A DNA stretch of 64,000 bases from a virus, in IMG/VR virus record IMGVR_UViG_3300044568_003163, positions 230,035-294,034 of that record; one strand, given 5' to 3'. The position numbers and the translations under genes were made by a program. The notes below the pieces were generated by a model. It did no database searches and had not been told where the DNA came from. It saw nothing but the letters and a program-made list of their open reading frames with translations. Numbering within the stretch: position 1 is the first letter of the stretch; each line of letters begins with the position of its first letter. Of this stretch, positions 4,034 to 17,087 are shown one piece after another.

Positions 4034-4519
4034 TTAACAAATAACAACTGCTCTAGTTCGTGTAGAGTTTACTAAACGATAGGTTAAGTCAATATAAATA
4101 GCTCCAGTATCTCCATTTATGTTTACAATATAATCAGTAGGTCTAATTAATTCCCAGAAGATCGAAGTATTTTCTTCGGTTTCAGGATCTATGAACGCGG
4201 AATTAACTCTCCATAATTGAATTTGAACATCCGCTAAGGAAGGAGCCATCCTTCTACCGATTAAAAATCCTGGAGTATATAGAGATATTTCTGCCGCTTC
4301 GATTATAAGTCTTTGATTTCCTGCAGAAATCCATTCCTTAATAAATTTTGATGTTGCTGCAGTGGATCCAGTAGGTCCAGTAATTCCAGGTAATCCATTT
4401 ATACCGGTTGCTCCTTGCGGACCAGTAGGTCCTTCTGATGATGGTAAGTATACCGGATTTCCAAAAAAATCTACTAGGATTCCATTTATTAAATATACTT
4501 GTTGACTACTTGTAGGCAT
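4034..4519 (-). CDS. Small collagen-like structural protein (161 aa)
   Basis: Residues about 30-53 are Gly-X-Y triplets (GPTGPQGATGINGLPG...) that should form a short collagen-like triple helix. They separate an N-terminal piece (SQQVYLINGILVDFFGN) from a beta-rich C-terminal domain of about 105 residues. Such trimeric rods occur in phage fibres and head decorations. It is placed between replication genes (gp44 upstream, RNase H downstream) rather than with tail genes, which is odd. No family recognised for the C-terminal domain. Its stop lies inside a TTGTTAATAACTTT element seen after several genes. Confidence 0.65.
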   Translation of the reverse strand: MPTSSQQVYLINGILVDFFGNPVYLPSSEGPTGPQGATGINGLPGITGPTGSTAATSKFIKEWISAGNQRLIIEAAEISLYTPGFLIGRRMAPSLADVQIQLWRVNSAFIDPETEENTSIFWELIRPTDYIVNINGDTGAIYIDLTYRLVNSTRTRAVVIC

Positions 4520-7578: not shown

Positions 7579-7986
7579 TTACTTCAATAATTTTCTAATA
7601 TTTTCAATAACTATTGATCGATGATTGATAACTGCCTGAGCTTCTTTAGGATGTCTTTGCATAAGTTTTATCGTTTCTCTTGCCCAATTTTCTATTTCCT
7701 TTGTTAGCTCAAGAGTTTTAGGCCAGGTTGAATCGTTAACGACATCAAAATCTGGATTACCTTCTAGTGATTCAATTCCAGTTTCTACGCTTTTATCGAT
7801 GTTCGACCAATATCCACCTCCTTTAGAACTTATGATAGTTCCAACTGATACTTTTACTTTTCTAGTTCCTCTGATATTTTTAACTTCAGTGTCTTTATTA
7901 GCAATATATACATTCCAATATTCTCCACCTTTATCTAAAAATGTAGATTCATTTAAGAATTCTTCGTATGTAGGTAGTTTACTCAT
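7579..7986 (-). CDS. Predicted internal head (capsid-targeted) protein (135 aa)
   Basis: The N-terminus MSKLPTYEEFLNES fits the shared capsid-targeting pattern, with a predicted gp21 cut after FLNE. The mature part starts with a beta-rich section (EYWNVYIANKDTEV, RKVKVSVGTIISSKGGGYW), perhaps a small SH3-like barrel, and ends in helices (IENWARETIKLMQRH). No known family. It starts at the final base of the ATP-grasp gene upstream and abuts the next cargo gene downstream, so the three are probably co-transcribed. Confidence 0.65.
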   Translation of the reverse strand: MSKLPTYEEFLNESTFLDKGGEYWNVYIANKDTEVKNIRGTRKVKVSVGTIISSKGGGYWSNIDKSVETGIESLEGNPDFDVVNDSTWPKTLELTKEIENWARETIKLMQRHPKEAQAVINHRSIVIENIRKLLK

Positions 7987-9482
7987 TATTTCTTTGTTTT
8001 CTTATTTTCAAATGTTATTCCAGCATGTGCACTTCCTTTAGCTTCACCTGGATGATATTCACCATCAAATGAAGTTACTACGAAAGTTTTATATGGCGAT
8101 ACTGAACAACCAATTCTTTCCATAAATTTACGATTAACTAAAAATTTAGTAGATTTATCTGTTCTATTAACTAATGAAACCTGAACCTCTTTGTAAGTTT
8201 TACCTGCAAATGCAATATCCATTTCAATTATAGGCCTTTCATCTATATCGTTACCAACTTCTGCGTTAGAAATTCCAATTATCTGATGTACGTATTTTTT
8301 GCCGTTCAATTCCCAATTACACTGTTTACCATCTTCGCTAATTTTCATTTTATCATAAGTCATAGAACATGAAAGTGAACCGTTTCCAGTATCAAATTTA
8401 GCAACAACATCACCAATTCCAGGAATTGTAATTACTTCTCTAAATCCAATAACTCTACGAGAACGAATCCAATTTTGTCTATCTGATAGAAAATCGATGA
8501 TGTCTTTAATAACATCTACACCAGTAGCTTTTTTTAATCCTTGTGTACCTGGAGATGAGTTAACTTCCAGTACATAGTTTTTACCTGTTTTCTCATCAAC
8601 GATAATATCAACTCCACACCAATTACAACCTACTGCCTTAGCCGATTCGATTGCAATTCTTTCTTGTTCTGGTGTTAATTTAGTTTTTTCAACAGAACCA
8701 CCTAATGAATAGTTAGTTCTAAAGTCTTTATCGACTTTGTTTCTTCTCATATAACCTAAAAGTACCGAGTCAGTATCTTCTGGTTTAGGCGAATTGAAAC
8801 GTTTAGTTAAAACGTGAATACGTAAGTCATATTCTGATTCGATTTTTTCTTGTATAAGAGTTTCTACAGTTGGATCTACTTTCCATAAAGTTTGTAATAC
8901 TGATTTAAGAGATGCCAATGAATCTATAATAGAAACTCCAATTCCTTGAGAACCAGAAAGCATTTTAAGAATTACAGGAAATTGTCCGCCGATTTGTTCA
9001 ACTGCCGGTTCGATAGAATCTTCTCCATCGACCATTGCCATTTTAGGAACTGGAAGACCAGCATCCATAAGCATTTTCGAAGTAACGTATTTGTTTTCGC
9101 ATGCTAAAACTGAACTTAGTGTGTTTACTACAAAAAAGTTATTGTCTTCTAATTGAGATACAATATCTCGAGTATAAGTATTTCTAACGATTCCTCTACG
9201 AGTTAAAATCGCAGTATCTTCGGAATCAATTTTAAAGGGTTTCTTGGTTTTATCAACGATAGTAAAATAATCTCCATCAGTACTTTTAGTTAACGAACAT
9301 GTGTTAACGTCAATGATACGGAATTCAATTCCACGTTTTTTACATTCTTTCTCAACTGCAGGAACGGTATATGATTCCTCACTGATATTTGAAAGGAGTA
9401 CAACCTTAACAGGATTTTTAGGTGTTGATTTTGTAGCCTCATTAATTACAAATTCGTTAAAGTATGCGAGACGGTTTTTCAT
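7986..9482 (-). CDS. RimK-type ATP-grasp ligase fused to retropepsin-like protease, with capsid-targeting leader
   Basis: The first 16 residues (MKNRLAYFNEFVINEA) match the capsid-targeting pattern, with a cut expected after INE. Residues about 25-330 are a RimK-type ATP-grasp ligase: FPVILKMLSGSQGIGV (ATP-binding loop), DLRIHVL, FRTNYSLGG, and CGVDIIVDEKTG...VLEVNSSPGTQG (metal-binding acids). RimK enzymes add glutamate or similar residues to protein C-termini. From about residue 342 a second domain has FDTGNGSLSCSM (DTG at about 364-366), the pattern of the retropepsin-like 'ATP-dependent zinc protease' family often found beside RimK. Both in one polypeptide, with a head leader, suggests an enzyme packed in the capsid that modifies or trims a protein tail. 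Substrate unknown. Confidence 0.85.
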   Translation of the reverse strand: MKNRLAYFNEFVINEATKSTPKNPVKVVLLSNISEESYTVPAVEKECKKRGIEFRIIDVNTCSLTKSTDGDYFTIVDKTKKPFKIDSEDTAILTRRGIVRNTYTRDIVSQLEDNNFFVVNTLSSVLACENKYVTSKMLMDAGLPVPKMAMVDGEDSIEPAVEQIGGQFPVILKMLSGSQGIGVSIIDSLASLKSVLQTLWKVDPTVETLIQEKIESEYDLRIHVLTKRFNSPKPEDTDSVLLGYMRRNKVDKDFRTNYSLGGSVEKTKLTPEQERIAIESAKAVGCNWCGVDIIVDEKTGKNYVLEVNSSPGTQGLKKATGVDVIKDIIDFLSDRQNWIRSRRVIGFREVITIPGIGDVVAKFDTGNGSLSCSMTYDKMKISEDGKQCNWELNGKKYVHQIIGISNAEVGNDIDERPIIEMDIAFAGKTYKEVQVSLVNRTDKSTKFLVNRKFMERIGCSVSPYKTFVVTSFDGEYHPGEAKGSAHAGITFENKKTKK

Positions 9483-9966
9483 TTTTGCGTATATATTTTA
9501 TGAATGATTTCTGATTATCTATCATCATTCTCTTACATTTTTCAGTAAAAGCTAATGAAGATTCAATAACTCGTTGGTCTATTTTTTCGTTACCTTTAAG
9601 GTAGTATTTAAAACATTTTTCACAAGTAAAATTACTTGGAATGTATGTATCTATTCGAGATTGAATCTCTTTATTGCAATAAGCACAGTTCCAATCAAAT
9701 ATCTTATACGAATCTTTTACTAATGAATAAGAAGATATGTCTTTTGACCCTGGTTGAACAAATGGCCTATTCAAATGAGATACTCTTATTCTTCCATCTT
9801 CGATCCTAAAGATGGCATTTATAAAAAGGTCATCATCAGCATATTTCTTAACTACTGGATTTTCCTTTAGTATTCGTTGATGCCTAGGTGGAAGTCCTTT
9901 AAGTACGATTCCATATTTAGTAGGAGTTTTACCTAAGTTCTGTCTTTTTATATGATAATTAGCCAT
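9457..9966 (-). CDS. Zinc-ribbon hypothetical protein (169 aa)
   Basis: Two CxxC pairs (CAYCNKEI at about 93-100, and CEKCFKYYL) about 20 residues apart suggest a zinc ribbon in the middle of the protein. The N-terminus is basic (YHIKRQNLGKTPTKYG, GLPPRHQRIL) and the C-terminal 40 residues are helical and basic. A nucleic-acid-binding or regulatory role would fit. It overlaps the start of the ATP-grasp gene by 26 bases and the stop of the 703-aa gene by 8 bases. No family recognised. Confidence 0.6.
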   Translation of the reverse strand: MANYHIKRQNLGKTPTKYGIVLKGLPPRHQRILKENPVVKKYADDDLFINAIFRIEDGRIRVSHLNRPFVQPGSKDISSYSLVKDSYKIFDWNCAYCNKEIQSRIDTYIPSNFTCEKCFKYYLKGNEKIDQRVIESSLAFTEKCKRMMIDNQKSFIKYIRKNEKPSRIL

Positions 9967-12070
9967 TTATAGGATATTCATTCCATAAATTATTTAATCG
10001 TTCCTCTGCTAATGAAAGTATTGCGGATATTGTCCATAAATCAGTAGAATTACCTTCTTCGGCAGTTTCTTTATATTTATCGATAGCTGCTTTAGCTATA
10101 TCTAAATTAGCTTGAATTTTATCTACTTCAGTTTGTAGGATTTCCTTTTTAGCTTCATCGGTTTCATTCTTAAGCTCTTCTTTCTTTGAATCTAATCCGG
10201 TTTTGATTGCATCGTACTTTTCAGTTGCAGTACGAAGTTTAAATTCTTCGATAGTTTCTGTTTGTTCTTCTTCAGGAGCTTCTTTAGGAGATTCACTAGT
10301 AGCTTTCTCTAATTTTTCTGGATCAGTCTTTTTTGCTGATGCTTCACCTTGCTTTTCTGCTTCGTCTGACTTTTTTTCTAAGTCCTTCATCATTTCTATA
10401 GCCTTGTCTAATTGACCTTTAAGAGCTTTTTTCTTTTTATCACTAGGAATTAAAGTAGCAAGTTGAGTAAGAAATTCAACACGATTTTTAGCACGTTGTT
10501 TCGATATGTACAACCACGAAAAGAAATTAGCTTTACCTAATAGACCTCCAACTAATTCGTTGGTAGCATCTTTTTGATTTTCTACTGCTGAATCAATATC
10601 TTTCAATTGAGAAACATATGAATCGGTAGCAATTTCTACTTGTTCTCTAAAAGCTTCAAGTTTTTCTTCGTCAGTCATATCCGTATCTTCGCTTTTGAAA
10701 TTATCTTTAACGTCATCAACTTCTACTTGTGCCTTTCTTTTAGCAGTAGCCGCATCAGATATTTCCTTTTCTAGAGCTCTAATTTCAGCAGCATCTTCTT
10801 TTGGATCTAAATTAGCCTTTTCTTTTCTAAGTCTATTAAGTTTTTTATCGGCATTAGATAAATTAGACTTAGCTTGCTCTAATTTTTCTTTTGTCTTTTC
10901 GTTAGACTTTTTAATGTTTTTAAGTTCTTCTTCGTCTGAATCTTCTTCCTCTTCGGCATTTATATCGTCAGCAGTATCATCAGTTGCAGTTGCACCAGTA
11001 GGTCCAGTAGTTCCTTCTGGTTCTTTTTCGGTCGATGTAGTTGATCCGGTAGGACCTGTAGTTCCATCAATTGCAGTAGTTCCTTCTGGTTCCCTTTCAG
11101 AAGATGAAGTTGCACCAGTAGGTCCAGTAGTTCCTTCTGGGTTTTTAACTTCTGGCTCTTCTGCTGGAGTTTCTTCTTGCTTTAATTTTTCTATTTCGGC
11201 TTTAAGATTATCATAAGCTTCTTTTGCAGATTGTTTACCTTCAACAGATGAATTATCTAATTCTAATTTAAGTCGATCTAAATCAGCTAATTTAGACGCA
11301 AGTAAAGCTTCTTTTGCTTTTTTCTCTAATTCGGCTTTATCTAATTGGTCTTCTCCATCTTCTTTAAGATTAGAAATTTCCTTTTTGATTTTAGCAAATT
11401 TTTCATAGTTAACATAAGATTCCTGTCTTGCTTTTGCTATTTTCTTAGCGTCATTAGCATCGTCAGCCTTCTTAATGTCTTTCTGTTCAGCAGATAATTT
11501 AGCATTTTCTGCTTGATATTTTTTATGAGTTACTTCTAATTCTCGTCTCTTTTCTGGATCGTCGACAACAGAAGTTATTTTTTTCTTAATTGATTGAATT
11601 TCGTCTTTAACCTTAGCCTTAATTTTACTAATCTTTTCTAATTTATCAGTATCTGAAGCACCTTTAGGTTGTGGAGTAGTTTTAGGTTCAGTTGGTTTAG
11701 GAGTTTCCTTTGCCTTAGGTTCTACCTTAGGCTTAGGTGCATCTTTTTTCTTTGGTTCAACTTTGGCTTTCTTTGCAGGAGTTTTATCCGGTGCTTTAGG
11801 TTTAACTTTTTTAGATACCTTCCTAGCTTGTTTTCTTGCTGCTCTTTTTTGTGCAGCAGTTTGAACTTCAACTAAAGCAATATATTGTGGTAGACTTGAA
11901 AAGTCATATTCTTTTAATGATTCAAATACATCTCCTAATGTGGCATCCTCATCGACAAAAATATCGAAATCTTCACATATCGTTTCAAAAAGAGATTCTA
12001 ACAGATCTAAGTATATTTGATCGTTTACTTCTTCTTCGTATTTTTCTAATAAATAGTTGTTTAATTTCAT
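9959..12070 (-). CDS. Large coiled-coil, Lys/Pro-rich and collagen-like head protein, possible scaffold (703 aa)
   Basis: Three kinds of low-complexity sequence are visible. Residues about 70-140 are Lys/Pro/Ala-rich (histone-tail-like KKVKPKAPDKTPAKKAK). Long stretches before and after are charged heptad-type coiled coil. The middle (about 310-370) has three collagen-like blocks (EGTTGPTGAT, DGTTGPTGST, EGTTGPTGAT). The start MKLNNYLLEKYEEE is a weak version of the capsid-targeting leader. The gene lies just downstream of the major capsid gene, where a scaffold or core protein could sit, although T4 gp22 lies before gp23. A role as prohead core or DNA-binding internal protein is inferred from composition and position. 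Confidence 0.6.
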   Translation of the reverse strand: MKLNNYLLEKYEEEVNDQIYLDLLESLFETICEDFDIFVDEDATLGDVFESLKEYDFSSLPQYIALVEVQTAAQKRAARKQARKVSKKVKPKAPDKTPAKKAKVEPKKKDAPKPKVEPKAKETPKPTEPKTTPQPKGASDTDKLEKISKIKAKVKDEIQSIKKKITSVVDDPEKRRELEVTHKKYQAENAKLSAEQKDIKKADDANDAKKIAKARQESYVNYEKFAKIKKEISNLKEDGEDQLDKAELEKKAKEALLASKLADLDRLKLELDNSSVEGKQSAKEAYDNLKAEIEKLKQEETPAEEPEVKNPEGTTGPTGATSSSEREPEGTTAIDGTTGPTGSTTSTEKEPEGTTGPTGATATDDTADDINAEEEEDSDEEELKNIKKSNEKTKEKLEQAKSNLSNADKKLNRLRKEKANLDPKEDAAEIRALEKEISDAATAKRKAQVEVDDVKDNFKSEDTDMTDEEKLEAFREQVEIATDSYVSQLKDIDSAVENQKDATNELVGGLLGKANFFSWLYISKQRAKNRVEFLTQLATLIPSDKKKKALKGQLDKAIEMMKDLEKKSDEAEKQGEASAKKTDPEKLEKATSESPKEAPEEEQTETIEEFKLRTATEKYDAIKTGLDSKKEELKNETDEAKKEILQTEVDKIQANLDIAKAAIDKYKETAEEGNSTDLWTISAILSLAEERLNNLWNEYPING
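10988..11140. repeat. Direct repeats coding for collagen-like blocks
   Basis: Bases 10988-11020 and 11108-11140 are identical over 33 bases, with a diverged third copy between them. They encode the EGTTGPTGAT blocks of the 703-aa protein and are probably prone to copy-number change. Confidence 0.85.
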
Positions 12071-12748: not shown

Positions 12749-14371
12749 TTATACTAAAGAACCAAGAAGGTTAGACATAAATACACCTGAAGTGATATAC
12801 ATAGTTTCTGGTTTGAAACCTGCTTCAACTAAAGCGTATCTTGATTTAACAGCTACTTTAGGAGCCATAGTTCCTTCAGCAATTGTTTGTACTGATTCAG
12901 CCATTAAGTAAGGCATGAATACTAAACCTGGAGAGTTACCATCACCTTTACGTCCAACTAAGAAACGAGTATCGTTCCAAGCCATGTTAGGATCGTTGTA
13001 GATAGCAAGACCTGCAACAGTTCCAATTGGGTAAAGTGAACCACTCATTTGGTTAATAGTATTAGCCATAGGAGCAGGAACGAAACCAGCTATATCTTGT
13101 AGGGCAGAACATACTTGACCGTTTGTAACGATGAAAGTAGCTGGACCTCTACGACCTCTAATTGCAATAAGGTTAGCGATTGCAAGGATCTTAGACATAA
13201 TTTTTCTCTGACGAGTTGAAAGATTCTCAGAAGCTGAGTTTGTAACCTCAGAAGCAAGAATAGTTGCAGCTCTAAGAGTAGTATCTTGGATGTAAGCACC
13301 AAAGTTAGTTTGAGTGTTAGCAGATGTACCAGATACAACAATTGAAGTAGCACCAATGTTCAAGAAGAAGTTGATTCCTTGAGAGTTAACAACATTTTTG
13401 TGGTTAGTTTCTCCAAGAGCAAATAATCTAGAAAGGATGTTTTTGTTGATTGATTGAGTCAATTCATTGATAAGTACTGATTCTACTTGAGATACAGCAT
13501 CTACTCCGAATTGTTTCAAATCTTGAACTTGCTCTCTAGTAACAGCAGCTGCAACTTGGAAAGTTTTAGCTTCAACTGATTTGTTGAAAAGACTTAAGTT
13601 CATTACGTTGTCTGGAGTAGACTCACCTAAAGATCTAGAATATGGATCGTTAATATCATCTCCAGTATAATCGTTGTTAGTTAAAGCTTGACCTGAGAAT
13701 CCAGTGATGTGGTCTTCTAAAGCTTTTACTAATTCTACGTTTAATCCAGAAGTAGCACCAGTTACACCTGAGATACCTGAAGCACCTAAGATAGTAGTAA
13801 AAGTTGAAAGGATAGTAGCACCAGAAAGAGTACCTCTAACGTGGAAGATTGGATAACCATCTAAACGAGAAGATCCTACATAAGCAAGAGTAACTCCATT
13901 AGTTGAAGCAGAAGTTCCACCAACTACAAACGAAGGAACTGTAGCAGAACCATAGTTTACTTTGATTAATAATGGAGAATTTGTAGTAGAAGCAGTTTGA
14001 CCACCAGCATATACGAAGTCTAAGTAAGTTAATACTCCCATTGGACCAGGCATTGGTACAACAGGTACTAAGTCAAGACCAATAGTTTGAGCAGCAACTT
14101 GCATTGCTAATGGAAGAAGTGTGTGAGCTTTATCACCTGAACCAGCTTCTTGACCTGGGAAACCAGCTTGAGTACCTGGATCTCCAGGGAAACGAGTTGC
14201 ACCCATACCGTTTACAGAACCTAATTGAGCTAAGCTATTGTTTTCATACAATTCATGATAATGACAGTATTTAGACATCCACTCTACTCTATTACGCTCT
14301 TGAATTCCTGTAGTAGACTCAATGATTGGAGCCCATTTACCGAATATTTCTTGTTCGTTAATTAAATACAT
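12749..14371 (-). CDS. 23: Major capsid protein (gp23)
   Basis: HK97-fold shell protein of the T4 gp23 family; 540 residues against 521 in T4. Family features include the N-terminal FGKWAPIIE (T4: LLNKWKPLLE), the region around EAKTFQVAAAVTREQVQDLKQFGVDA (T4 has KAAYSIELAQDLRAVHGMDA), RKIMSKILAIANLIA, FIVTNGQV and YGSATVPSF-type beta stretches. A gp21 cut is predicted after L-Y-E at residue 43, giving a mature N-terminus NNSLAQLGSVNGMG. Part of this reappears after a matching site in the DUF3008-like protein at 41495-42208. The leader carries a late-promoter-like element at 14442-14455 and the gene ends in a strong terminator, so it can be transcribed on its own at high level. Confidence 0.92.
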   Translation of the reverse strand: MYLINEQEIFGKWAPIIESTTGIQERNRVEWMSKYCHYHELYENNSLAQLGSVNGMGATRFPGDPGTQAGFPGQEAGSGDKAHTLLPLAMQVAAQTIGLDLVPVVPMPGPMGVLTYLDFVYAGGQTASTTNSPLLIKVNYGSATVPSFVVGGTSASTNGVTLAYVGSSRLDGYPIFHVRGTLSGATILSTFTTILGASGISGVTGATSGLNVELVKALEDHITGFSGQALTNNDYTGDDINDPYSRSLGESTPDNVMNLSLFNKSVEAKTFQVAAAVTREQVQDLKQFGVDAVSQVESVLINELTQSINKNILSRLFALGETNHKNVVNSQGINFFLNIGATSIVVSGTSANTQTNFGAYIQDTTLRAATILASEVTNSASENLSTRQRKIMSKILAIANLIAIRGRRGPATFIVTNGQVCSALQDIAGFVPAPMANTINQMSGSLYPIGTVAGLAIYNDPNMAWNDTRFLVGRKGDGNSPGLVFMPYLMAESVQTIAEGTMAPKVAVKSRYALVEAGFKPETMYITSGVFMSNLLGSLV

Positions 14372-15173: not shown

Positions 15174-17087
15174 TTATCTGTTAAATCTTCTTCTTAATTC
15201 AGCTTCTACGGTTTCCATGTAATTAGCCGGAGTTTTATATTCTGCAGTTTCATTAACAATTGCTGGTGCAGCACCTTCATTTAATGGAGCATCAATTTTA
15301 ACTGATCTTAAATCTCTAGTAGCCCAGAAATCATCGATTTTATATTGATTATCTAAAACTTTTACTGAAGCTTGAGCCTTAATTGAATTTCTTTGAGATT
15401 CATTTAAGTTATTCCAAGAGTCTTTGTATTTAGCTGGCATATTAGTTAACCAATTTGTAACTGGTCTAAATGCAATAAATGCAGATTCATATAATCTTTC
15501 AGCATCAACTGAACCATAGAATTTGTTATTTTCAAAAACTGCAATAACTTCGTCTTTTTTCTCAGGAGTTAATGCATCAAATTGATTTCTCTTGTTTTCT
15601 GATAGGAAATTCAAGAAGTGTAATTTGTTAGCATCTACTGATTCATTAACAGTTTTTGCATTTTCTAAAATAGTATTTAATTTGTCGGTTAATGTCTTTT
15701 GGAAAGCATCTTCTTCATTACCTTCAATTTTATCTACGATAGTTCTTTTTGGATTTGAATGTAATACTAAGTTTTCGTCGATTGATTGAGTACCTTCTAA
15801 ACCAGTAACTTTACCTTCATTAATTTCTTTAACGATGTGATTAAGATAACCTGCAAGATTTTGTGTATTTTCTTTTAAGTACTCAGTATATTCAATGATT
15901 GATGATGTACCTTCAACAATATAATCGTTATGAGAAATTACATTATCTAATTGCTCATTCATATGTTGTTGATAAGCCCAACGTGAGTTAGATTCATTAG
16001 CAAGATATTTACTAAATTCAATATTTTGATCTGCCTTTTCTGCAACAACTTTAGTATATTCAATACCTCTATCGCTCATTTCAGCAACTAATTTAGTATA
16101 CTCAATTAAGTGGTCAACCGATTCAGAAAGTTTTTCTGAGTAGTTAATTCCTTGATTAGATTTTTCACCAACTAATTCTGCATAATTTTTAACTCTTTCA
16201 AGATTTTCAATGATATAATCATTATGAGAAATTAAGCCATCAACTGATTCTGCTAGTTTTTCAACATAAGAATTAATTTGATTAACTCTTTTTGCAGTTT
16301 CTTCGGTGTAACGTATCAATCCTTCATTAACAGATGAAGAATCTTTAGCTGATGATTCGGTTAAAGACTTTTTAAGATTTTCTACTTCGTTTTTAACATG
16401 TTTAGTATATTCGTTAAAATCTTCAACGGTAATGTATTTTTTAGGATCCATTTTGTCGTTTTTTGTTTCGTTTATTGGGTTTGGGGTTGGTTCTTCTTGT
16501 TGATAGATTAAAACAGGCATATCAGATTCGCTCAAATCAGACTCTATTTCATAGATCTGTGTTAATGAATCGTTGTCTAATCCAAAAGATTCGTTTACTC
16601 TTTTCAATTCGGCATTAGCAAATCCAGGATCTGCAACTAAATCGTAAGTAAACATTTTTTTAATTTTAACATGGCCATTAGATTCAACAACACCGGCAGC
16701 TCTAGAAGAAATATGAAGAGGTACACCAGCATCTACTAATGCCATTGCTTGTTTTCCAGCATCAGTATTAAGTAATCTGATTCTACCAGTAACTTTTTTG
16801 CTAGCTTTATCGTATTGAATGTCTTCAATAATATGTGAAGCATTCTTTAACGATATATCAAAAGATTTAGGGTGGTCAAGTTCTCCAAGAAGTTTATTAC
16901 CTTTAAGTTTTTCTTGTAAGTCTTGTATGTGTGGCATTAACTCAGCTTCATCGTAAATACGATTATTCTTGTTTCTAATGCCTATTTCGGTGAAAACACC
17001 TTCCAACACATATTTATCTCCATCCTTAGAAGATGTAAGATTTCCTTCCGATCTTTCTAATACAAGTAGATATTTATTATTGCTCAT
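15174..17087 (-). CDS. 21: Prohead protease (gp21) fused to a scaffold-like coiled-coil domain
   Basis: Residues 1-165 are a gp21-family (U9) serine protease that matures the prohead: GVFTEIGIRNKNNRIY, LLGELDHPKSFD (His at about 72), HISSRAAG (Ser at 127/128) and TYDLVADPGF. T4 gp21 is only about 212 residues; here some 470 more follow. That part is acidic, with many [LI]-x-E sites and a repeated heptad-like unit (IEYTKLVAEMSDRG, IEYTKVVAEKADQN, INYSEKLSESVDHL). This looks like a scaffold (gp22 role) fused to its protease. An in-frame ATG at 16449-16451 (MDPKKYITVEDF), just after a Pro-rich linker, could start a separate scaffold product, as Nu3 does inside lambda C. The C-terminal end has LNE and VNE sites. 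Confidence 0.88.
   Translation of the reverse strand: MSNNKYLLVLERSEGNLTSSKDGDKYVLEGVFTEIGIRNKNNRIYDEAELMPHIQDLQEKLKGNKLLGELDHPKSFDISLKNASHIIEDIQYDKASKKVTGRIRLLNTDAGKQAMALVDAGVPLHISSRAAGVVESNGHVKIKKMFTYDLVADPGFANAELKRVNESFGLDNDSLTQIYEIESDLSESDMPVLIYQQEEPTPNPINETKNDKMDPKKYITVEDFNEYTKHVKNEVENLKKSLTESSAKDSSSVNEGLIRYTEETAKRVNQINSYVEKLAESVDGLISHNDYIIENLERVKNYAELVGEKSNQGINYSEKLSESVDHLIEYTKLVAEMSDRGIEYTKVVAEKADQNIEFSKYLANESNSRWAYQQHMNEQLDNVISHNDYIVEGTSSIIEYTEYLKENTQNLAGYLNHIVKEINEGKVTGLEGTQSIDENLVLHSNPKRTIVDKIEGNEEDAFQKTLTDKLNTILENAKTVNESVDANKLHFLNFLSENKRNQFDALTPEKKDEVIAVFENNKFYGSVDAERLYESAFIAFRPVTNWLTNMPAKYKDSWNNLNESQRNSIKAQASVKVLDNQYKIDDFWATRDLRSVKIDAPLNEGAAPAIVNETAEYKTPANYMETVEAELRRRFNR

What the first reader, a model, noticed from the sequence alone, without database searches (positions are those of the whole stretch)
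7986..9482. Predicted head-packaged RimK ligase fused to a retropepsin-like protease
One polypeptide holds a head leader, a complete RimK-type ATP-grasp ligase and a DTG-containing retropepsin-like domain. RimK and this protease family are often neighbours in bacteria. A fused form carrying a capsid leader suggests an enzyme delivered with the DNA, or working in the prohead, to add or trim amino acids on a target protein tail.
Basis: partly seen in the sequence, partly recalled or inferred. Interest (0 to 1): 0.85.

Follow-up and report, generated by a model that had tools for sequence, protein, structure and literature searches.

The report
Phage head-targeted RimK–retropepsin fusion enzyme
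A large uncultivated bacterial virus, and dozens of relatives, carry one protein that joins an enzyme for adding amino acids to proteins to a retrovirus-type protease that probably trims them, behind a signal for packing into the virus head; such a protein may rewrite protein tails inside the particle or at the start of infection.

Summary
The minus-strand ORF at 7986-9482 (498 aa) has a T4-type capsid-targeting leader (cut predicted after Glu15), a complete RimK ATP-grasp ligase and a retropepsin domain. PF05618 alone is sub-threshold, but a 52-sequence profile matches solved RloA peptidases (E 1.5e-10), and the AlphaFold model matches RloA, then HIV protease. Ligase Lys/Mg residues and the catalytic Asp are conserved in 68/68 homologues; the poly-glutamate-contacting residues of RloA (K46, R114, R137) are kept in 66, 66 and 68 of 68.

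It is one phage family: 544 viral stretches encode relatives. The RimK domains form one clade, apart from bacterial RimK. Bacterial RimB-RimK hybrids, already published, have the opposite domain order, confirmed here in six Bacteroidota-side genomes. The leader motif is kept in most homologues, and 46 minus-strand ORFs of this contig carry it. The homologue of cultured phage YerA41 is annotated as a particle protein. In many distant relatives a strongly acidic protein is encoded next door; not in the window's clade.

Most likely it is a head-packaged enzyme that adds and trims acidic residues on a protein tail. Substrate, and host versus prohead site of action, remain open. New variant of a known kind.

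The parts
7986..9482 (-). CDS, 498 aa: capsid-type leader + RimK-type ATP-grasp ligase + retropepsin domain
   Evidence: ORF; Pfam/NCBIfam; AlphaFold models; Foldseek
9435..9482 (-). Residues 1-16, capsid-targeting-type leader, predicted cleavage Glu15|Ala16
   Evidence: T4 CTS spacing; leader enrichment in contig; F8 F/Y in 57/68, F11 F/Y in 61/68, E15 in 62/68, residue 16 A/S/G in 66/68 homologues; followed by a variable linker
8475..9410 (-). Residues 25-336, RimK-type ATP-grasp ligase
   Evidence: PF08443 1.9e-34, TIGR00768 over cut-off; Foldseek 7qys E 9e-23; K131, K173, D292, E306, N308 in 68/68
8073..8453 (-). Residues 344-470, retropepsin (RimB/RloA-type aspartic peptidase) domain
   Evidence: A3 profile against 9g59 E 1.5e-10; Foldseek RloA2 E 7e-9, HIV-1 PR 3e-4
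8385..8393 (-). Catalytic D364-T365-G366 (FDTGN)
   Evidence: D and G in 68/68, T in 67/68 (Ser in one), N367 in 68/68
7989..8072 (-). Residues 471-498, C-terminal tail beyond the retropepsin fold, conserved in IMG/VR relatives, short or absent in YerA41 and Mosig
   Evidence: A1/A2 alignments
9457..9966 (-). Upstream gene (169 aa, two CxxC pairs), overlapping the fusion gene by 26 bases; conserved partner in the window clade and in 47-48%-identical relatives L076, L095
   Evidence: weak DUF4379 treble-clef match E 0.007
9959..12070 (-). 703-aa Lys/Glu-rich protein with collagen-like GTTGPTG repeats; between head genes and the fusion, rapidly diverging in relatives
12749..14371 (-). Major head protein (context)
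   Evidence: PHROG 138 E 1e-33
15174..17087 (-). Head maturation protease (context; candidate enzyme for leader removal)
   Evidence: PHROG 207 E 2e-40
7579..7986 (-). 135-aa downstream gene with the same leader (MSKLPTYEEFLNE|S)

Best explanation
A bifunctional tail-editing enzyme packed into the phage head. Shown by sequence and model: leader, intact ligase site, intact retropepsin site with poly-glutamate-contacting residues. Inferred: the leader recruits the protein into the prohead core, and the head maturation protease removes it after Glu15. The RimK half then ligates acidic amino acids (most likely glutamate) to a carboxyl terminus using ATP. The retropepsin half, acting as a dimer, cuts acidic stretches, so one polypeptide both lengthens and trims a tail. 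Being in the particle, it is most likely released with the DNA and acts on a host protein early in infection, as T4 Alt does with another chemistry. The substrate is unknown.
For: Catalytic residues of both halves invariant in 68/68 homologues down to 32% identity. RloA contacts for poly-Glu K46/R114/R137 (PMC12239564) map to K362, R416, R440, kept in 66, 66 and 68 of 68. Leader as in T4 IpII/IpIII; the first 10 residues of IpIII suffice for packaging (PMC9026906). The tetrapeptide [LIVMYF]xE[ASG] lies in the first 45 aa of 59/67 homologues against 11% of internal stretches; a stricter F..FLNE[AS] form occurs in 44 N-termini and 0 of 635 internal stretches. Leaders also occur on the Mosig fusion (YLEEA) and on the Melnitz single RimK (FSQFITEE). 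YerA41 homologue annotated as structural protein in a phage with 63 particle proteins found by MS. Gene four places downstream of the major head gene in the window clade and three in L076/L095.
Against: No activity, substrate or virion data for this protein. The YerA41 homologue lacks a recognisable leader, and that particle list includes replication enzymes, so carry-over is possible; its supplementary table was not readable here. The glycine of the bacterial LLGR motif is Asn in 66/68 phage proteins, so specificity may differ. A few relatives (L106, L114, L115, L117, L118) have F[VI]F[QK]G in place of LNEA. In other clades the gene sits among replication or baseplate genes.
Confidence: 0.5

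Rival explanations
1. It works inside the prohead, not in the next host: it tailors or clears acidic core proteins (the T4 gp67 kind) during head maturation.
For: In 24 of 45 distant loci (<55% identity) an ORF of at least 80 aa with at least 30% Asp+Glu lies within two genes of the fusion, against 1 of 475 ORFs further away. Two arrangements: directly upstream on the same strand (L106, L114, L115, L118) or convergent downstream (L026, L028, many of L068-L104). The L114/L118 proteins hold glutamate runs of 7-9 and start with ILSFEEF. RimB needs about six consecutive Glu and also cuts internal poly-Glu (PMC11957791). T4 gp67, a prohead core protein, is similarly acidic.
Against: 0 of 19 loci of the window's own clade have such a neighbour, and the window's contig has no comparable acidic leader protein. 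Loci are related, so the count is not 24 independent events. Prohead clearance already has its own protease. Many acidic proteins have Glu runs of only 2-5.
Confidence: 0.25
2. A phage enzyme expressed in the cell that modifies ribosomal protein S6 or another translation factor (a RimK/RimB auxiliary gene), not packaged; the leader is incidental.
For: RimK and RimB act on S6 in Pseudomonas (PMC7343187); cyanophage RimK genes without leader or protease exist.
Against: The S6-ligase equivalog is far from met (90 against 331 bits); the leader is conserved beside a variable linker in most homologues; a homologue is annotated as a particle protein.
Confidence: 0.12
3. A ligase for a small molecule or carrier protein (MptN/CofF/LysX-like); the retropepsin domain serves only for dimerisation or regulation.
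For: The best equivalog-level score is MptN (132 bits against a 350 cut-off), then LysX and CofF; Foldseek also gives ArgX/LysX. In bacteria RimB stimulates RimK besides cutting (PMC11957791).
Against: The retropepsin DTGN and the Glu-contacting residues are kept in nearly all 68 homologues, unexpected for a purely structural domain.
Confidence: 0.1

Closest known systems
RimBK hybrid (Desulfotalea psychrophila DP2392; Bacteroidota-side hybrids examined here)
   Same: One polypeptide with a RimK ligase and a RimB-type retropepsin; protease activity on poly-Glu S6 shown for DP2392 (PMC11957791).
   Different: Protease is N-terminal there (six of six hybrids read), C-terminal here; RimK domains fall in a separate clade; no leader; cellular.
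Separate RimK and RimB of Pseudomonas (RimABK)
   Same: Same two enzyme families, adjacent genes; folds match.
   Different: Two proteins; RimB glycine in LLGR replaced by Asn in the phage family; S6 equivalog not met.
RloA/RloA2 periplasmic retropepsins
   Same: Fold and DTG; poly-Glu-contacting K46, R114, R137 kept.
   Different: Secreted, not fused, no ATP-grasp partner.
T4 Alt and internal proteins IpII/IpIII
   Same: Leader spacing and cleavage after Glu as in IpII/IpIII; Alt is a protein-modifying enzyme injected with the DNA.
   Different: Alt is an ADP-ribosyltransferase; IPs are not ligases or proteases.
Pelagibacter phage Mosig QOI68969, Yersinia phages YerA41 gp066 and GN1
   Same: Full-length fused homologues, 33-35% identical.
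   Different: Annotated only as 'glutathione synthetase' or 'structural protein'; the fusion was not recognised there.

Membership tests
RimK family (TIGR00768/PF08443) | Profile match above curated cut-off | tested here: met
   161.2 against 143.4 bits; PF08443 119 against 21 bits
RimK family (TIGR00768/PF08443) | ATP and Mg2+ residues (two Lys, Asp, Glu, Asn) | tested here: met
   K131, K173, D292, E306, N308 in 68/68; roles of these residues from own knowledge of E. coli RimK
S6--glutamate ligase equivalog (PRK10446) | Equivalog cut-off | tested here: not met
   90 against 331 bits
RimK family (TIGR00768/PF08443) | Glutamate ligase activity | not testable with these tools
   No assay
RimB/RloA retropepsins (PF05618) | Profile match above cut-off for this sequence alone | tested here: not met
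   14.9 (18.9 for the domain alone) against 27 bits
RimB/RloA retropepsins (PF05618) | Homology with the family through relatives | tested here: met
   A3 against 9g59 E 1.5e-10; 44/52 members match PF05618; L121 and L122 exceed the cut-off
RimB/RloA retropepsins (PF05618) | Retropepsin fold with DTG | tested here: met
   Model pLDDT 87, Foldseek RloA2 and HIV-1 PR; D364 68/68
RimB/RloA retropepsins (PF05618) | Residues contacting poly-Glu (K46, R114, R137 of RloA) | tested here: met
   K362 66/68, R416 66/68, R440 68/68
RimB/RloA retropepsins (PF05618) | LLGR second motif | tested here: not met
   Gly replaced by Asn in 66/68
Bacterial RimBK hybrid | Order protease-ligase | tested here: not met
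   Order ligase-protease; six hybrids read are protease-ligase
T4-type head-targeted internal protein | N-terminal CTS with cleavage after Glu | tested here: met
   Sequence pattern in this protein (one extra residue) and most homologues; cleavage itself not testable
T4-type head-targeted internal protein | Presence in the virion | tested here: inconclusive
   Only indirect: YerA41 homologue annotated structural

The most novel reading that the evidence does not exclude
Large phages carry in the particle a self-contained writer and eraser of acidic (poly-glutamate) protein tails, which either reprograms a host protein in the first minutes of infection or sets the length of acidic tails on the head's own core proteins. 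This would be a type of virion-borne protein modification not described in the papers searched here.
Probability: 0.35. Interest if true: 0.82.

Novelty: new variant of a known kind. Interest (0 to 1): 0.62.

Why it matters
RimK and RimB have been studied as cellular regulators of ribosome modification, and their hybrid as a bacterial curiosity with unknown ligase target. A phage-specific family with the opposite domain order, intact active sites and a conserved packaging leader suggests that phages use amino-acid ligation and trimming as a packaged function, next to the ADP-ribosylation known from T4 Alt. It gives a concrete, cheap test (virion proteomics and two enzyme assays) and a possible substrate class (acidic, Glu-rich proteins encoded next door in many relatives). 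It also corrects annotations such as 'glutathione synthetase' and 'structural protein' in isolated phages.

Tried and rejected
The small gene after the fusion in many relatives (RDLGKTTED ending) was considered as a LysW-like carrier substrate: it looks like a ribbon-helix-helix regulator by eye, so rejected. C-termini of the window's neighbours were inspected for Glu ends as ligase acceptors: none stands out. Bacterial origin of the fusion was considered: four hits in 84,980 species genomes; L121 and L122 are on contigs of 5.4 and 3.6 kb and nest inside the phage clade, so probably phage DNA in MAGs; L123 resembles Mosig; L124 is an ordinary rimB-rimK pair (L125). That scan used exact peptide patterns and can miss distant forms. 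A Vibrio plasmid hit covering 90% of the query proved to be two adjacent genes, not a fusion. Acidic neighbour as universal substrate: rejected for the window clade (0/19). Search of PF05618 in the phylum of G003 gave little. Papers on phage RimK gave only an auxiliary-gene mention, a PaBG annotation and the R2K ATP-grasp clade, none with a retropepsin fusion.

Full report
WHAT IS THERE. The ORF at 7986-9482 is on the minus strand and encodes 498 aa. The window is the last 64 kb of a 294,034-base IMG/VR virus record. From the N-terminus the protein has a leader (MKNRLAYFNEFVINE|A), a RimK-type ATP-grasp ligase (residues about 25-336), a retropepsin domain (about 344-470) and a short conserved tail.

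LIGASE. PF08443 E 1.9e-34; TIGR00768 rimK_fam above its cut-off, but no equivalog reached, the S6-ligase model at 90 of 331 bits. The AlphaFold model of the full protein (15 sequences, mean pLDDT 78) matches RimK of Pseudomonas syringae at E 9e-23. The two ATP-binding lysines and the Mg-binding Asp, Glu and Asn are invariant in 68 of 68 aligned proteins. It is a RimK-family ligase whose substrate cannot be read from the family.

PROTEASE. It is not. A profile of 52 phage domains hits the solved RloA2, RloA and Lpg0085 structures at E 1.5e-10, 5e-9 and 2e-8; 44 of 52 members match PF05618 singly; two relatives exceed its cut-off. The domain model (pLDDT 87) matches RloA2 at E 7e-9 and, after the other RloA-type chains, HIV-1 protease. 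D364 and G366 are invariant, T365 is Ser in one protein, and the following Asn is invariant. RloA residues K46, R114 and R137 contact poly-glutamate; alanine at R114 or R137 hurts catalysis most (PMC12239564). With D48 as the catalytic Asp, K46 lies two before it; the profile alignment places these at phage K362, R416 and R440, kept in 66, 66 and 68 of 68. The Gly of the bacterial LLGR motif is Asn in 66 of 68, so specificity may have shifted.

LEADER. T4 IpII and IpIII begin MKTYQEFIAE|A; the first ten residues of IpIII suffice for packaging, with residues 4 and 7 for targeting and 8 and 10 for processing (PMC9026906). The spacing [FYL]xx[FY][LIV]xE occurs within 22 aa of the start in 47 of 609 ORFs of this contig (46 on the minus strand), against 10 of 3881 internal stretches. 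The ORF list is mechanical, so 609 includes spurious ORFs, which makes the comparison conservative. In the fusion family, [LIVMYF]xE[ASG] lies within the first 45 aa of 59 of 67 proteins, against 11% of internal stretches; the stricter form is in 44 N-termini and no internal stretch. The leader is followed by a variable linker. Mosig has FKNYLEE|A at 34% identity, and the Melnitz RimK, which lacks the protease, has FSQFITEE. YerA41 has no clear leader. Five relatives carry F[VI]F[QK]G instead.

PARTICLE EVIDENCE. YerA41_066, a full-length homologue, is annotated 'structural protein'; that group reported 63 particle-associated proteins by LC-MS/MS (PMC7354516). The list includes replication enzymes, and its supplementary table could not be read here, so this is supportive, not proof.

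FAMILY AND ORIGIN. 544 viral stretches encode relatives; the best 80 loci were kept. A scan of 84,980 species genomes gave four hits, none a clear chromosomal fusion. In a tree of RimK domains, all phage fusions, with Melnitz nested inside, form one clade (98/100) apart from bacterial RimK. The published bacterial hybrid has RimB at the N-terminus of RimK (PMC11957791); PF05618 matches in 84 of 297 genomes of the phylum of G002 (a Saprospiraceae MAG), about twenty of them in frames of 450 aa or more, and all six hybrids read here are RimB-RimK. The phage order is the reverse, so it is most simply a separate fusion.

CONTEXT. In the window the order on the minus strand is head maturation protease, leader protein, major head protein, 189 aa, 703 aa, 169 aa, fusion, leader proteins. 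This block is kept in the window clade and, from the head gene on, in L076 and L095 at 47-48% identity. In L021 the gene lies among baseplate genes; in the L068 group among other, replication-type genes (assigned by eye). In 24 of 45 distant loci a strongly acidic ORF lies within two genes, against 1 of 475 ORFs further off; several have long glutamate runs and LSF[EK][ED]F-type motifs. The window clade has none (0 of 19). T4 gp67 is a similarly acidic core protein.

HOW IT MOST LIKELY WORKS. Shown: domain architecture, residues, leader conservation. Inferred: packaging, removal of the leader after Glu15, addition of acidic residues by the ligase, trimming by the retropepsin dimer, and release with the DNA. 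I favour action on a host protein after injection (0.5 for the packaged tail-editing enzyme as stated) over action on core proteins in the prohead (0.25), because enzyme and leader persist while the gene's place varies. The acidic-neighbour link keeps the prohead reading alive.

NOVELTY. Both domain families and a bacterial hybrid are known. New here are the phage family with reversed order, its packaging leader and its wide distribution. I found no paper in the held library that describes it; subscription journals and preprints were not searchable.

Noticed in passing
G000 contig, clusters near 33-42 kb, 108-117 kb, 167-180 kb, 225-226 kb, 237-239 kb, 244-255 kb, 272-275 kb: About 45 ORFs carry the same T4-CTS-like leader (e.g. 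MKNLPTYEEFLNE|S), most of unknown function: a large predicted set of head-packaged proteins.
   Followed up: partly
L106, L114, L115, L117, L118 around 4.4-5.9 kb: Extremely Glu/Asp-rich proteins (43-62% acidic, Glu runs up to 9) beside or near the fusion, starting with ILSFEEF-type motifs.
   Followed up: partly
L026, L028, many of L068-L104, about 0.2 kb downstream of the fusion, opposite strand: Small acidic proteins ending in a conserved RVLSFKDFF-like motif, i.e. a leader-like motif at the C-terminus.
   Followed up: partly
L024:9434-10408, L089:7403-8392, L093:7373-8341: A second, divergent RimK-like ligase without protease directly follows the fusion; the L089 one has a leader-like start.
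   Followed up: partly
L118:7485-8918 and the same place in L106, L114, L115, L117: Asparagine-synthase/glutamine amidotransferase gene (PF00733 E 4e-39 in L118) convergent with the fusion.
   Followed up: no
window 9959-12070 and 4034-4519: Collagen-like GPTG/GTTGPTG repeats in two proteins.
   Followed up: no
L106, L114, L115, L117, L118 fusion N-termini: F[VI]F[QK]G replaces the LNEA leader, perhaps a different prohead-protease specificity.
   Followed up: no
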